A stretch of DNA of 64,000 nucleotides, taken from Lepraria neglecta. Its lineage: Eukaryota; Ascomycota; Lecanoromycetes; Lecanorales; Stereocaulaceae. The DNA lies in contig CM065653.1 in the NCBI GenBank assembly GCA_033220425.1, forward strand, positions 2,480,001 to 2,544,000. Direction: 5' to 3'. The notes under the pieces were generated by a model. It saw only the letters and a list, made by a program, of their open reading frames with translations. It was not told the origin of the DNA and did not search any database. Position 1 is the first letter of the stretch. The number at the start of each line of letters is the position of its first letter. This document shows positions 3,551 through 23,697 of the stretch, piece by piece. The translations under genes and the position numbers were made by a program.

Positions 3551-6500
3551 ATGGTAGGTGCCTACTGCCCCGCTCACATGGATCTTCCTAGCACTGACAC
3601 CTACAGGACGCTTGCGGCACTCCAGAACAGCCCATCAAGCGCTTCGGACTCACTGAAGTGTATGTTCCCGCAGACGTGGCGACCGCCGACGTGGTCTTCA
3701 TCCACGGCCTGAACGGGAATCCACATGATACTTGGACCAGCGAAATCTCCCACAATTTCTGGCCTGCACAGCTCTTGCCTTGCCATCTACAGGAAGAAAA
3801 GGCACGGATATTGGTCTACGGATACGATGCAGATATTGTATCATTTACGGACGGCGTTTCCAGTGATAAAATTCACAATCATGCGGAGCACCTCGTTGCA
3901 GAGTTGGCCGCTAACAGGAGTGTTCGCAAAGCTAGGGAGCGTCTTATCATTTTTGTCGCCTACTCTCTAGGAGGCTTTGTACTTAAGCGCGCGTTGATAT
4001 ACTCTTCGGAAATATGTGGGAGCTACACTGAGTACCTAAGATCTATCTTCGTGTCTACGTATGGCATTATCTTTCTTGGAACCCCACACAAAGGTATGGA
4101 CACCATGAGATGGCGTTCACGGTTGGAGGCTGTCTGTCAAGTAGCCATACCCAATGACGTCGTCGACCACAGTTCATACTTAGTCGATGCTCTCAAGTCC
4201 AACAACCAAACCCTCCAAAATATTGATCGTCAGTTCATCCAGCTCAGCAGCCACTTCCACTTATACTTCTTCCACGAAGGGAAACCCACTGATATAGGAA
4301 ACAAGAAAGAATACATCGTTGACGAGGGGTCTGCATCTCCAAATATCCAAGATGTTGAACGTGCAGTCATCCAACAAGACCATTTGCACATGTGCAAATT
4401 CGAAAGCAATAATACCCCAGGCTTTGAGCTCTTGGCGGAAGGAATACAACGCTACGCCAGTAGAGCGCCGGGAACGATTAGCTTACGGTGGGGTTTAGAA
4501 AAAGCAGATCGGCTGGCGAAGAGGAGGGCCCAAGCCGAGGAGCTATATCCCGATATAGCCAACCGCAGCGACATTGTTGGGTTATCTAAGTCTACACCAC
4601 CAGGTTCGTGGATCTCACACTAAAGTATATTAGAATCCAATGTAGAAGCAAGGAAGGTCTTGAAAGAAATGAGTCTTGTCACCATAACCGACATCATTTG
4701 TACGAAGCTATTGGTATACGGTTGTTCGAACGCTGATGAGTCTCAGGGTCGGTCCCGTATTTGCGGAACCCGGATTTTGTCGAGCGGGAGCCATTGCTCG
4801 AATAACTGGCGAAAATGCTAGCCTTTTCAGAAGACTCGCAGGCAAGAGTAGCCCTGTATGGCCTGGGCGGGTCAGGGTTCGTACTTTGGACGAGTTTGGA
4901 TAGCTTGGTACCCGCTGACCGGATACAGCAAATCGCAGATCGCTCTAGAGTATGCGTATAGAAGCATCAAACTGACGGGAAAAATCAGCGTCATATGGGT
5001 CGACGCGAGTAGCGAGCTCACCTTCCAGACTGGGTTGATGGCGTTCGCCGAGCAAGCAGGCTTTCAGAATGCCACTAGCACCCAGGCAACCATGATGAGT
5101 CAAGCGAGAATATGGCTAGAGAAAACCCACAATAAGTGGCTCTTGATCATCGACAATGCAGATGATGAAAGAATCTTCGACAAAACCATCACAATATCGA
5201 AAACAGCAGCTACGGGTATCGTATCAGAGAAAGTCTCCTTGCTCAGTTATATTCCCAGATGCGCTAACAGTGCGATTATTTTCACGACTAGGAATGGACA
5301 AGCCGCAAACAGACTGACGGCCGTTGGAGACGTCGTGGAAGTGCCTGCTCTGGACAAGGAGGGAGGAAGACGATTGTTGACGAAGAAATTAGGTGTTCTC
5401 GAAGCAAACCTCGAAAGCACCGCGGAAGACTTGCTTTCCCTTCTTTGTTACCTTCCTCTTGCAATCGTTCAGGCTGCTGCATACATCAGATCAAGAGTCA
5501 TCACGATCACGGACTATATCAGTCTGTTCGAGGAGAATGAAAACGATTCATCCAAGTTGCTAAATGAGGATTTTGAGGATACAGCACGGTCAATGGAAAG
5601 CAAGAATGCAGTACTCAAGACCTGGATAATATCATTCAAGCAGATAGAAAGGTATCATCGTCGATCCGCAGATTTACTCTTTCGCATAAGCTTCTATAGC
5701 CATCAAAGGATACCAAGCACACTCTTGTACACAGGAGGCAGCAAGGCCGACTATATAACGGACTTAGGCGTTGTCAAATCGTTCTCGCTCGTCTCAAGAA
5801 GCGATCTATACGGTGCAGTGGATCTCCATCGTGTGGTACAGATTTGCACACGAGCATGGCTACGGTCGATCTCGGAAGAATCCAAGTGGGCCAGCGAAGC
5901 CACACGTGTTGCTTCGCTGTCATTTCCCGAAGACGACGTGGACAACTGGGCTCATTGCGCTACACTGTTGCCGCATGCGCTGGCTGTCTTGGAGTGTCAG
6001 ATCTCGAATGAAGCGCGAGCTGCTCAAGCGACCTTACAAGCCCATGTTGGGTCTTATCTGGTCTCACAGGGCAAATATGATGAAGCAGTGTCATGGCACC
6101 GTCGCGCTCTCGCGACCCGGCAATCAGAGCTCGGCGGAACCGATTATAGGACTCTGCAGAGCTCCGAATCATTGGGTAAGGCGCTTTGGCGTTGCGGTGA
6201 ATTTGAAGCAGCCAGGACGCTTCTTTGCAGAAGTCTCAAGTCCTGCGAGACTGAATTAGGCATCGAACATAAAGATACGCTCAAAACCTGCGCGACCTTA
6301 AGTGATGTATGTTGGGACTTGGGTCTCTTCAAAGCCACGGAAGAATTGAACAAACGTGCACTGGAAGGACGACGGAGGGTTCTAGGAGACAAACATCGTG
6401 ATACGTTGGACAGTGAATCTAACGTGGCGGTGTTCCAGTGGTTTCATGGAGACTACTTTGCTGCTTTGAAAACAGCGCGCGAACATTTACTTCGCGTTCA

Positions 6501-8142
6501 GTCATCTACCAAAGATCTCAGGCCTGAATCATTGAGGGCGCTAGACCTCATAGCTTCTCTCGAAGAGGCTCTAGGGGTGTTCGAGTCCGCCCAACATCAT
6601 TTCTCAAAGCTCCTAGAGGGGCAACTATCCTTACTAGGTCCCGATCATCCAGAGAACGCCAAGTTGATGTCTCGACTTGCAAACATCTACGCATTCCAGA
6701 GGAAATTTCAGGAAGCGTATCGCTATGGCAATGATGCCTACGAGTTGTCGAAAAGAGTACTGGGACAGACACATCCGCAAACGATCTCATCGCTCCAAGA
6801 TTTGGCTATGATATATGAAAATGACGGGAAATTCACCCTCGCCGAAGAGTGTTTATTACTTTGCCTCGAATACACCCGAAAGCGGTCCGGAGACAAGAGT
6901 CCAATCTTTCATTGTGTTTCCATCCAATTAGCGAATTTATGGCGAGTGGTACGTCGTTATAAGGAAGCCGAGCAGACCGTTCGACAAGTCTTAAGCGACC
7001 TTGTCGAACAGCTAGGGGCGCGACATCCCAATACAATGCAGGCCACCAACTCCCTCGTGCTAACACTTCGAGATCAATGCACATTCGAGGAAGCAGAACG
7101 AATCAATCGAGAACTTCTAGAGGATCAGAAAGAGACCTTGGGCCCAAAGCATCCTAGTACCTTGACGAGCGCGAGCATATTAGCCTTGGTACTTCAAGAC
7201 CAGCGCCAATACGAAGAAGCAGAACAGGTTAATCGACAAGTTCTGGCAGATCGAAAAGAGGTCTTGGGCCCGAAGCATCCTAGTACCTTGACGAGCGCGA
7301 GCAACTTGGCCTCGGTACTTCAAGACCAGCGCCAATACGAAGAAGCAGAACAGGTCAATCGACAAGTTCTGGCAGATCGAAAAGAGGTCTTGGGCCCGAA
7401 GCATCCTGATACTCTAGATACTCGAGTTGAGTTAGCAAGGATTTTCACGATACAGAAGAAATATTCAGAATCCGAGGATTTCACCCGGCAGGTCTTGAAA
7501 GACCTGGAAGAGGGGCTTGGAAGAGACCATCTCACTACCCTGAGAGCTATGAACAATTTAGGCGTTGTCTATTGGTATCTTAACAAGTATGAGGAAGCAG
7601 AGGAGCTTACTCGGCAAGCGCTTGAAGGAGAGAAAGCTTTTTTTGCTGGAAACTCACCCAGAATCTTAAATACTACTGCCAACCTAGCTGCAATTCTTGG
7701 AAGCAGGAAGGATTATAAAGCTGCGGAGGATCTGAGCCGCCAAGTGCTGGAAGCAAGAAAAAAAGTGCTGGGCAAGCAACATCCCGATACTCTAACCAGT
7801 GTTGATAACCTAGCTGGGTTACTTCAGGATCAAGGCCGGTATACTGATACCGAGGAGCTCTATCGAACAAGCATGAACAATCTGGCCGAGGTGTTGAGCA
7901 GCCGAGGCAATTACGAAGAGGCCGAGCACAGAAGCTCCACTTCCACCAAAAGAATAAAGAATTGGCTTCAGAGACCGCTCCAGAGCGCTGCTTCATTTCT
8001 TTTTCGTCCATATTCGACAAGTAATCGAAAGGATCAATCGACGAGGCTCTTCACAATATCAAGCGTCTTTCGGCAAAGAAATGAAAGGGAAATGGGACAA
8101 CAGCTAAATAGAGATGGACGGCGAAGGAGTAGGATTCGATAA
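3551..8142 (+). pseudogene. NLR-like gene: alpha/beta hydrolase - NB-ARC - TPR, interrupted by one nonsense codon
   Basis: Proposed exons are 3551-3553 (start codon only), 3607-4603, 4747-4876 and 4929-8142; all phases close over 1448 codons. The N-terminal third is a SesB-like alpha/beta hydrolase with VVFIHGLNGNPHDTW, a nucleophile elbow YSLGG and FLGTPHKG. The NB-ARC P-loop GLGGSGKSQ is assembled across the 52-bp intron at 4877-4928. Further on come WLLIIDNADDE (Walker B), FTTRN and CYLPLA. The C-terminal half is about 42-residue TPR units of the kinesin-light-chain type. Such STAND proteins sense non-self and can trigger incompatibility-type cell death. In exon 3, codon 4803-4805 is TAA where the family has Gln (LLE-Q-LA). 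As read, translation would stop after the hydrolase domain. A lost allele, a sequencing error, or a hydrolase-only product are all possible. The first exon is the least certain part. Confidence 0.8.
7141..7398 (+). repeat. Near-identical tandem TPR units, 126-bp period
   Basis: Two consecutive TPR-coding units starting near 7141 and 7267 are almost identical at DNA level, with only a handful of differences, and the next unit begins the same way. Each encodes 42 residues around LQDQRQYEEAEQVNRQVL. Surrounding TPR units are clearly diverged, so this is recent duplication or homogenisation inside the gene. Confidence 0.85.
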
Positions 8143-8177
8143 AATAGGAGCTTCCCTTTTAATAGAATATCTCAACT

Positions 8178-8577
8178 ATGGATCAAACGTATCGGACCGC
8201 GTCTAGGCTTACAGGCATGGTGGAATACCTCAGAAACACAATGATCGATTCGGTGGATGAGTTCATAAGCAGACTCAAGCTTGACCTCAGCCTTATCCGC
8301 AGCGGGTAAGACTTTGCATGTACCAAGATAGAACAAAATAAGAGCCACAATTTAACCTTCTCAAACCAAAGAAACTAGATAACCGTAGACTCGAAAGGAA
8401 GGCGTCTGCAAATATGCTAGAGAGGACTTGTAATAACATAGAAGGAATATAGAGGATACTGACGCTGCCGTACTGGGTGGACAACTGATCGGTTCGAACG
8501 CCAAGACCGTGCCAGGCATCACGCCCGTGCGCGTTGCCCTGGTCATGGTCCTGCTTGTAACAACTTACTTGTATTGA
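8178..8577 (+). other. Two coding-like fragments of an unrecognised small gene
   Basis: A frame from ATG 8178 to 8305 (43 codons, starting MDQTYRTASRLTGMVEYL) ends at a good donor, GTAAGA at 8306. A second open stretch, 8461-8577, ends in a hydrophobic segment (VALVMVLLVTTYLY) and a stop, like a C-terminal membrane anchor or GPI signal. I could not find an acceptor that joins them in phase, so the middle may be decayed or hold a further exon. I do not recognise the family. It lies 35 bp after the NLR-like gene and just before the TA-rich relic. Confidence 0.3.
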
Positions 8578-8885
8578 ATATAAAGAAGAAGAAGAAGCTA
8601 TATAGGTAGGCAGAAGACTATATAGTAGCCGTTAAGGCGCTAGAACGAGAGATACGCAGGTAGTATGCCAAGTACGCCCGTAACACTAGCGATATATTAT
8701 TCCGGCCTATAACTATATAAAATAGAGAGAATAGTCGAGGATAACTATAGGGAAGACGGTAGTTATAATCTTTAGGTTATAAGAGTAAGAATTAAAGGGT
8801 CAGGATAGGCGGCGTACTGCTCCTATTTATACCCTAACTTAGCGGCTATCTCTAAGGCCCTTAAGGTAGGCTGTACGAGAGCGTG
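8578..8885. other. TA-rich relic sequence, RIP-like composition
   Basis: This block is rich in TATA, CTATA and GGTAG-type words and poor in CA dinucleotides compared with its neighbours, and no long frame is open. That composition is typical of repeat-induced point mutation of an old repeat in Pezizomycotina. I cannot name the original element. Confidence 0.4.
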
Positions 8886-9010
8886 TGCTTTTCTGGATGC
8901 TCGAACAAGGGGGTCTTAGTGAGTGTGAGCGTGAAGCATTGGCAAGAGTCTTGCACATCATAATTGGCTAAAAAATATATATGAAACCCCACCTCCTACC
9001 ACACACCATC

Positions 9011-22143: not shown

Positions 22144-22382
22144 CAGGACGTAGAGGGAACTGAAGAAAGGAATGTGAGATCAAGGAGACGATAATGTTTT
22201 GTAGGACGAGACAGGCAGTAGCGAACGGCTTCGGTCACTAGGTTGATCCGATTTTAGTCGTCATTGCATGGCTTAACTCCGTCGACGGGATTGTAAGCTT
22301 AAAAGAACTGTTTAATAGCGAGCAGTCTATGAAGAAGCTGTACCTTGGCTCCAAGGACTCTCCAATCGTTTGATGAGGTCAT
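22144..22382. other. Left part of a divergent promoter, cut by a transposon
   Basis: Non-coding sequence between the NAPE-PLD-like start codon and the transposon's left flanking repeat. With 23783-23895 it makes up the roughly 350-bp ancestral promoter shared with BCS1. Confidence 0.6.
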
Positions 22383-22387
22383 GGTGT

Positions 22388-22451
22388 CTCCCGGGGTAAA
22401 AATAAATTGGCCGATCTGCGCCTGATTTTTGCCCCCAGCCAAAACAGTACT
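22388..22451 (+). repeat. Left terminal inverted repeat
   Basis: Begins CTCCCGGGGTAAAAATAAAT and runs 64 bp to CAGTACT. It is identical to the reverse complement of the right repeat. Confidence 0.95.
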
Positions 22452-22494
22452 GTTTTTCTTCCTTTCCCTAATACCTTACCTTAATTCGATTAAT

Positions 22495-23697
22495 ATGGGC
22501 CGAAAACGAAAGCGAATAGCTGACGTATAACCTCATATACCCGGTACTGAGCATCCTACGCCTACCAAGGCTAAAATGCAGGGCGTAATAGAGTTCCTAG
22601 AGGCAAAAGGCCTACTCAAGAAAAATGCCAATACCCCGATCCCTACAGAGCTCCCTACAAAGCACGATATCTACGAGTATTTCAACGTTCCTGACCGCTC
22701 AGCGTCACGTATCCTCGGCGCCGAAAACCCTACCGAACAGGCCGCAGAGTCGTCTCGTCGGGGCTACTATCAGGGGATAGAGGAAAAACGCGGGCTTAAG
22801 GGCAAAATTGGCTGGCGGGAGCTGAAAAGAATGGAAGAAATCGTAAACGATGGGAATATTAGATATCGGGCCCTACTGTGGGCGGAGCTAGCCAAAAAAG
22901 CTGGCCTTACAGGGGATAAACAGGTCCATTTCTATACGGTTCGGAAGTTGATGCAGGATCAGGAGTACTATAAGTGTATCGCCTGTACAAAGAACTGGCT
23001 CTCCAGTAATATTCGAATAGAACGCCGGGTATTTGCTTGGGATAAGCAGACGTATAAGCTAGAGGACTGGAAACGGGTACGCTGGAGCGACGAGATATAT
23101 TTCGGCTTTGGCCCTGAGGGGAAGCTACGAATTATTCGACGTCCCGGCGAGCGGTTCTGTTGGGACTGTATTCAGGAACGGGGTAAGCCCCTAGAAGAAA
23201 AAGATAAGAAACGACTATACGCTTGGGCTGCTGTGGGCTGGAATTTCAAAACGCCCTTAATCTGGTATACGATACCGTTAAACCAGAACGGGAAGATGTC
23301 ATAAACCGCGTATATCGACAAGATCCTCGAGCTAATCGTTAAGCCCTGGCTCGAAAACGGGGGCGGCGAGTAGTTCGAATTAGAAGAGGATTGGGATTCA
23401 GGCCATGGCCCAGCGGATAATAATAATCAGGTACGGAGATGGAAGGCTAAACACGGGCTTGATTCATGGTTTAATGGCCCTAAATCCCCGGATCTCAGTG
23501 TGATTGAGACGTGCTTCCAGCCGTTAAAGCAGTTCCTTTCGAATAGTGGCCATTGGGATGAGGAAACGCTGCAAAAACGGGCTGAGGAGGGCTGGAATAA
23601 CCATGTTTCGCAGGATTTAATAAATAGATAGGTGCTTACAATGGAGGATCGGATATATGCTTGTTTAGACGGTGATGGGAGGATGACAGGCTATTAA
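22495..23697 (+). pseudogene. Tc1-like DDE transposase with four internal stops
   Basis: The frame from ATG 22495 (MGRKRKRIADV) to the TAA at 23695 is 400 codons and reads through as a DDE_3-type fungal Tc1-like transposase. The N-terminal DNA-binding region (QGVIEFLEAKG...DIYEYFNV) comes first. The triad blocks follow: RWSDEIYFGFG (first Asp), EEDWDSGHG (second Asp) and SPDLSVIET (third Asp). The C-terminus GDGRMTGY is family-typical. Internal stops are at 22528 (TAA), 23302 (TAA), 23371 (TAG) and 23629 (TAG). Several fall where relatives have Gln, so they fit C-to-T change of CAA or CAG. The copy cannot make a full transposase, though its ends look usable in trans. Confidence 0.9.

What the first reader, a model, noticed from the sequence alone, without database searches (positions are those of the whole stretch)
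3551..8142. Hydrolase-NB-ARC-TPR NLR with a single in-frame TAA before the P-loop
Every splice junction and the P-loop (built across a 52-bp intron) are intact, and the 3.2-kb last exon is fully open, yet codon 4803-4805 is TAA where the family has Gln. So the gene either lost function very recently, or makes only a hydrolase, or the strain carries a polymorphic null allele as seen for incompatibility genes. CAA to TAA is also the change RIP would make.
Basis: partly seen in the sequence, partly recalled or inferred. Interest (0 to 1): 0.7.

Follow-up and report, generated by a model that had tools for sequence, protein, structure and literature searches.

The report
Fungal immune-receptor gene with nonsense codon
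A fungal self/non-self receptor gene of a known type is complete except for one stop codon just before its switch domain, so it is most likely a recently disabled copy, which is a common state for such genes.

Summary
A three-part fungal NLR (DUF676/sesB-like hydrolase, NB-ARC, TPR) lies at 3551-8142, with one in-frame TAA at 4803-4805. Introns 1 and 2 have counterparts in the nearest hydrolase paralog (intron 2: same phase and a similar 3' end, not exactly the same site). The P-loop intron has counterparts in 10 NB-ARC paralogs. So the TAA very likely lies in a real exon. "The family has Gln" is half right: of 14 paralogs aligned, 6 have Gln, 6 Glu, 1 Arg, 1 Ser. RIP is not supported: no long near-identical copy, and 1 of 16 departures at conserved NB positions is RIP-type, against 7 of 8 in a RIPped paralog. 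Skipping the stop by another acceptor would keep the frame, but its branch motif is poor. Best reading: a recent nonsense (null) allele whose mRNA is probably destroyed. Nine of the 18 closest NB paralogs also carry aligned stops. Strain-dependent nonsense alleles of fungal NLRs are in print (Podospora nwd6). Whether this one is fixed, segregating or an assembly error cannot be settled here. Side finding: the last 276 coding bases are shared with an NLR 3' end on C4 and with stretches on C1 and C3.

The parts
3551..3553 (+). exon 1: start codon only
   Evidence: the paralog on C7 also has an intron straight after an ATG
3554..3606 (+). intron 1, 53 nt
3607..4603 (+). exon 2: DUF676 (sesB-like) serine hydrolase domain
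   Evidence: Pfam DUF676 E=8.2e-7, 29.2 bits over a cut-off of 20.3; paralog 63% identical
4604..4746 (+). intron 2, 143 nt, donor GTTCGT, CTGAT with its A 10 nt from the end
4747..4876 (+). exon 3: linker with FVxR motif and first half of the P-loop, GLGGSG
   Evidence: aligned with 14 paralogs
4803..4805 (+). in-frame TAA, codon 353
4815..4817 (+). in-frame ATG, 9 nt after the stop and before the P-loop (possible but unlikely restart)
4877..4928 (+). intron 3, 52 nt, inside the P-loop
   Evidence: counterparts in 10 paralogs
4929..8142 (+). exon 4: rest of NB-ARC, then TPR array
   Evidence: NB-ARC E=1.1e-8 for the spliced piece after the stop; TPR_10 E=1.7e-104
7086..7407 (+). 126-bp TPR tandem repeat, 2.6 copies, 89% matches
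7867..8210 (+). 3' end shared with C4 (89%), C1 (86%) and, from 7988, C3 (82%)

Best explanation
This is a chimeric fungal NLR gene (sesB-like/DUF676 hydrolase, NB-ARC, TPR) that has recently picked up one nonsense codon in the linker just before the P-loop. Shown: the single stop in a gene model whose introns resemble those of paralogs, the open NB and TPR frames after it, and the lack of other stops or frameshifts. Inferred: ribosomes stop after a complete hydrolase domain; the mRNA, with an exon junction 71 nt after the stop and a 3.3-kb tail, is mostly destroyed by nonsense-mediated decay; so no sensor is made and the allele is null. It is either a young pseudogene or a null allele that segregates among strains.
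For: Single stop in an otherwise open model. Introns with counterparts in paralogs. The piece after the stop scores over the NB-ARC cut-off (35.2 against 23.5 bits) and strongly as TPR. In-frame codon scores beat the other two frames for the hydrolase, NB, TPR and tail parts. With no other nonsense codon in 1,446 codons, neutral divergence since the loss is below 1.6-1.9% (95%), or 0.6-0.9% if indels at 5-10% of the substitution rate are assumed. Nine of the 18 closest NB paralogs also carry at least one aligned stop in this domain. Precedents: Podospora nwdp-1/nwd6 has stops in some strains only (PMC12222747, passages); Neurospora het-Vb is polymorphic for full and pseudogenized copies (PMC9262711, passages).
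Against: No reads, RNA or second strain were available, so an assembly error or an unusual splice form is not excluded. The 42-codon linker does not score best in its own frame (-0.03 against 0.06 in another). The NB departs at 16 of 66 well-conserved columns, against 1-5 in nine other paralogs without stops and 22 of 68 in L044; this may be subfamily divergence or older relaxed constraint. Introns 2 and 3 have a GTTCGT donor, unlike 9 of 10 paralog P-loop introns.
Confidence: 0.75

Rival explanations
1. Sequencing or assembly error: the strain's gene has no stop.
For: One base in an otherwise intact gene; no reads could be seen.
Against: The window lies in a 4.49-Mb contig of an 11-contig, 42.0-Mb assembly. 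That suggests long reads (inference), whose usual errors are indels in homopolymers rather than single substitutions (recalled).
Confidence: 0.1
2. The stop is skipped by another in-frame 3' splice site of intron 2 (AG ends at 4821, 4830 or 4833), so a shortened but complete NLR is made.
For: All three acceptors keep the frame with the donor at 4604. The TAA is itself part of an ATAAC at 4802-4806, one base off the CTAAC branch form. Three of the 11 P-loop introns have no recognisable branch motif either, so such a motif is not essential.
Against: The normal acceptor at 4746 has CTGAT with its A 10 nt upstream, as do 7 of the 8 P-loop introns with a motif (10-13 nt; the window's own intron 3 counted; L049 has 19). 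The alternatives have no [CT]T[AG]A[CT] motif from 4741 on, and the A of ATAAC is 16, 25 or 28 nt away (my count). The skipped 25-29 codons hold the conserved linker with FVxR.
Confidence: 0.04
3. Gene fission: a solo hydrolase is kept as a functional product, and the NB-ARC-TPR part may start at the ATG at 4815.
For: The hydrolase domain is complete; the ATG is 9 nt after the stop with A at -3. Fungi do have adjacent effector/NLR gene pairs (HET-S/NWD2; abstract of PMC4344463 in the listing).
Against: Restart after a 352-codon frame is inefficient in eukaryotes (recalled). A transcript starting inside intron 2 would meet ATGs of other frames at 4640, 4669 or 4736 first. The mRNA looks like an NMD target (inference). 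The hydrolase has Tyr where all 7 other motif matches among held loci have His next to the Ser; the effect of that is unknown.
Confidence: 0.06
4. RIP made the stop.
For: A C-to-T change in a Gln codon would be of the RIP type, and RIP has acted in this genome (L045/L047: 220 transitions, 1 transversion, 194 at CpA). The RIP index of 4604-4929 is 0.00, reached by 7.6% of window segments.
Against: In a DNA search of the genome the only long match of the gene is 65% over 658 bases; the tail copies are about 280 bases at 86-90%. One of 16 conserved-site changes in NB is C-to-T type, against 7 of 8 in L047. The gene's composite RIP index is -0.51, like the window's -0.58, but this is a weak test: L045, one of the RIPped pair, has -0.40. 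Of 12 paralogs with Gln or Glu, 6 have Glu, from which the change would not be RIP-type.
Confidence: 0.05

Closest known systems
sesB-like/NB-ARC/TPR fungal NLRs, e.g. Podospora anserina Pa_2_10340 (Dyrka et al. 2014, PMC4986451, passages)
   Same: Same three-part domain order; similar tandem TPR units; pairs of NLRs with highly similar NOD domains and different N-terminal domains are listed there.
   Different: This copy has a nonsense codon between the hydrolase and the P-loop. No sequence comparison with Pa_2_10340 itself was made.
Podospora nwdp-1/nwd6 (PMC12222747, passages)
   Same: An NLR called a pseudogene in the reference strain, without stop mutations in some other strains.
   Different: NACHT-WD40, not NB-ARC-TPR. 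Paoletti et al. ascribe NWDp1 to RIP (PMC1805685, passages); here RIP is not supported.
Neurospora het-Vb (PMC9262711, passages)
   Same: Polymorphic for full and pseudogenized copies within species; database gene models place unsupported introns to avoid premature stops.
   Different: A different gene; its architecture was not compared here.

Membership tests
Fungal sesB-like/NB-ARC/TPR NLR | N-terminal alpha/beta hydrolase | tested here: met
   DUF676 29.2 bits, cut-off 20.3
Fungal sesB-like/NB-ARC/TPR NLR | NB-ARC domain with P-loop | tested here: met
   Piece after the stop, spliced over intron 3: 35.2 bits, cut-off 23.5; the last-exon part alone is below the cut-off, 17.1 bits
Fungal sesB-like/NB-ARC/TPR NLR | C-terminal superstructure repeats (TPR) | tested here: met
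   TPR_10 339.7 bits, 12 stretches
Fungal sesB-like/NB-ARC/TPR NLR | High internal repeat conservation (over 85% over at least 100 aa in PMC4986451; found in a minority, not required) | tested here: inconclusive
   2.6 copies of 126 bp, 89% matches, about 107 codons in all
Fungal sesB-like/NB-ARC/TPR NLR | Triggers cell death or incompatibility | not testable with these tools
   No experiment
Nonsense pseudogene or null allele | Stop in a real exon before an essential domain | tested here: met
   by homology, not by RNA
Nonsense pseudogene or null allele | Further lesions or relaxed constraint | tested here: inconclusive
   No other stop or frameshift; 16 of 66 conserved NB columns changed, in a diverged subfamily
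Nonsense pseudogene or null allele | Stop confirmed in reads; varies or is fixed among strains | not testable with these tools
   No reads, no second strain
RIP-inactivated gene | Many C-to-T changes at CpA, skewed dinucleotides, a long similar copy | tested here: not met
   with L042/L043 and L045/L047 as comparison; the segment 4604-4929 alone has a somewhat raised index

The most novel reading that the evidence does not exclude
The change that made the stop also made a branch-point-like ATAAC. A fraction of transcripts could splice from 4603 to 4822 or 4831 and make an NLR without its linker motif, so the gene would become a switch between a solo hydrolase and a linker-less NLR rather than a dead gene.
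Probability: 0.04. Interest if true: 0.55.

Novelty: new member of a known kind. Interest (0 to 1): 0.2.

Why it matters
Fungal NLR repertoires are counted from intact models. A recent survey removed sequences with premature stops (PMC12258605, passages), so young nulls of this kind drop out of view. This locus is a one-lesion case in which strain typing could show whether null NLR alleles segregate, as they do at some incompatibility loci. Otherwise it is ordinary turnover.

Tried and rejected
Relatives in viral contigs, with the NB part as query: 9 pattern matches, none confirmed. No collection of fungal genomes was at hand, so orthologs and strains could not be compared. RIP as the cause: disfavoured by copy number and by the kind of changes; the composition index agrees but misses one known RIPped copy (L045, -0.40). 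An intron wholly within exon 3 that removes the stop: from the sites listed (donors from 4590 on) I worked out by hand the pairs that keep the frame (4748/4846, 4752/4841, 4757/4846, 4779/4841). Only 4757 has a GTA start, and it would end in AAG; no [CT]T[AG]A[CT] motif lies in 4741-4830. Donors further up in exon 2 were not examined. Restart at 4815: thought unlikely, see rivals. The conserved-column test was meant to date the loss; it is inconclusive because the window's NB is a diverged member. The RIP index around the stop is somewhat high (4604-4929: 0.00; 4704-4903: 0.05); I treat this as chance in a short, partly intronic stretch.

Counting notes. The 18 closest NB paralogs are L033-L050 (E up to 3.2e-16). 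The nine with aligned stops are L038, L043-L049 and L050 (L050's stop lies in a second piece that the row does not cover). Unmodelled introns may account for some. The 14 linker paralogs are L033-L043, L048, L049 and L059. Dropped before that count: L044 (P-loop seen, but stops in the linker frame), L045-L047 and L050 (no P-loop seen by the pattern), and the loci of other NLR classes with a differently built linker (for example L003-L022, L026, L029, L031, L051-L053, L057), which I did not align. One search measured P-loop introns in 11 loci that I chose (L032, the window itself, and 10 paralogs) out of the 19 examined. The output was cut, so its pairwise list is partial. RIP typing of the changes is mine, from residues, without codons.

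Full report
What is there. The window is part of contig C8 of a 42.0-Mb, 11-contig genome. The gene at 3551-8142 has four exons; joined, they read in frame with one internal stop, TAA at 4803-4805, codon 353. Before it lies a complete DUF676 (sesB-like) hydrolase domain (E=8.2e-7). After it lie an NB-ARC domain (E=1.1e-8 for the spliced piece after the stop) and a TPR array (TPR_10 E=1.7e-104). The frame of the last exon is open for 1,096 codons.

Are the junctions real? I compared them with paralogs in the same genome. The nearest hydrolase paralog (C7:1388643-1389590, 63% identical) has an intron directly after an ATG, as here. It also has a phase-1 intron after the hydrolase domain, with the end CTGATGGGTCTAG against CTGATGAGTCTCAG in the window; by eye it sits about 17 codons earlier than intron 2, so it is a counterpart rather than exactly the same site. 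The P-loop intron has counterparts in 10 NB-ARC paralogs, 47-64 nt long, while L039, L042 and L043 have none there. So the TAA very likely lies in a true exon, although both intron 2 and intron 3 have an unusual GTTCGT donor (9 of the 10 paralog P-loop introns start GTA or GTG). Hydrolase and NB parts have different closest relatives (C7 against C6 and C1 loci), so the gene is a mosaic; pairs of NLRs with similar NOD and different N-terminal domains are described in PMC4986451 (passages).

The codon. In 14 paralogs whose linker was aligned, the residue is Gln in 6, Glu in 6, Arg in 1 and Ser in 1.

Is it RIP? RIP has acted in this genome: L045 and L047 differ by 220 transitions and 1 transversion, 194 of the 220 at CpA. 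But a DNA search with the whole window gene finds no match longer than about 280 bases above 66% identity, and at conserved NB columns 1 of 16 departures is of C-to-T type (Ser to Phe), against 7 of 8 in L047 (the typing is mine, from the residues listed). The composite RIP index is -0.51 (window -0.58), but the index is a weak witness, since RIPped L045 has -0.40 in the same call. The short stretch 4604-4929 has 0.00, reached by 7.6% of window segments. A lone stop is more simply an ordinary point mutation.

How recent? If nothing after the stop is made, lesions should pile up. No other stop or frameshift is seen in 1,446 codons. That bounds neutral divergence since the loss at 1.6-1.9% (substitutions only) or 0.6-0.9% (with assumed indel rates), at 95%. 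The bound is void if the second part is still made. The NB domain departs at 16 of 66 conserved columns, against 1-5 in nine stop-free paralogs and 22 of 68 in L044: either a diverged subfamily or older relaxed constraint.

How does it work? Most likely it does not. Translation ends 71 nt before an exon junction and 3.3 kb before the normal end, a typical target of nonsense-mediated decay (general knowledge; PMC9118705, passages, states that PTC-bearing transcripts are degraded by NMD and studies this in Trichoderma). A free hydrolase, a restart at the ATG at 4815, or skipping by acceptors at 4821, 4830 or 4833 are possible on paper. Skipping has poor support: the normal acceptor has a branch motif with its A 10 nt away, while the alternatives have none of the consensus form; but 3 of 11 P-loop introns in that call lack the motif too.

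Context. Of the 18 closest NB paralogs, 9 have at least one aligned stop in this domain. Broken NLRs are thus common here, and this one has few lesions. In print, Podospora nwdp-1 was renamed nwd6 because it lacks stops in some strains (PMC12222747), strain Wa87 has an NLR repeat with two stops supported by reads (same paper), and Neurospora het-Vb is polymorphic for full and broken copies (PMC9262711). I saw passages of these papers, not the whole texts.

Side finding. Window 7867-8210 (the last 276 coding bases and 68 beyond) matches the 3' end of an NLR-TPR locus on C4 (L008/L063, 89%), a TPR-coding stretch on C1 (L064, 86%; no NB domain seen in the piece held) and, from 7988 on, a stretch on C3 (82%, not read). 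The rest of the gene is at most about 66% like anything else found in the genome, TPR units apart. On C4 the same frame stops after KNWP and there is a 4-base length difference; on C1 it runs further. So the C-terminal 70-90 residues of the model were probably brought in by ectopic exchange through the TPR repeats and may not be a conserved protein end (inference).

Verdict.

Noticed in passing
window 7867-8210: 3' end shared with an NLR locus on C4 (89%), a TPR-coding stretch on C1 (86%) and part with C3 (82%); looks like ectopic exchange through TPR units, with the reading frame not kept on C4.
   Followed up: partly
window 8400-9000: Stretches with 22 other matches in the genome and a positive RIP index (8142-9000: +0.46), starting a few hundred bases after the gene; likely decayed mobile elements (inference).
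   Followed up: partly
L045 (C7:31151-35224) and L047 (C9:29127-33200): NLR pair, one near a contig end and one on a 101-kb contig, differing by 220 transitions and 1 transversion, 194 at CpA: a textbook RIP footprint.
   Followed up: yes
L007, L008, L010, L011, L012, L013, L017, L018, L020: A large NLR-TPR family, about 74-94% identical in DNA in the pairs seen, with no stop in the NB-ARC match although RIP has acted in this genome; why it escaped is open.
   Followed up: no
window 3958-3975: Tyr precedes the nucleophile Ser (AYSLGG) where all 7 other motif matches among held loci have His (the pattern allowed His, Tyr or Cys).
   Followed up: no
window 22531-23304: Frame resembling a Tc1/mariner-type transposase by eye, with RIP index above 0 (22251-23500); not tested.
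   Followed up: no
window 7086-7407: 126-bp TPR tandem repeat, 2.6 copies, the last partial copy 69 of 70 bases like its neighbour: recent unit duplication.
   Followed up: partly
window 4604-4609 and 4877-4882: Introns 2 and 3 share the unusual donor GTTCGT, unlike 9 of 10 paralog P-loop introns.
   Followed up: no
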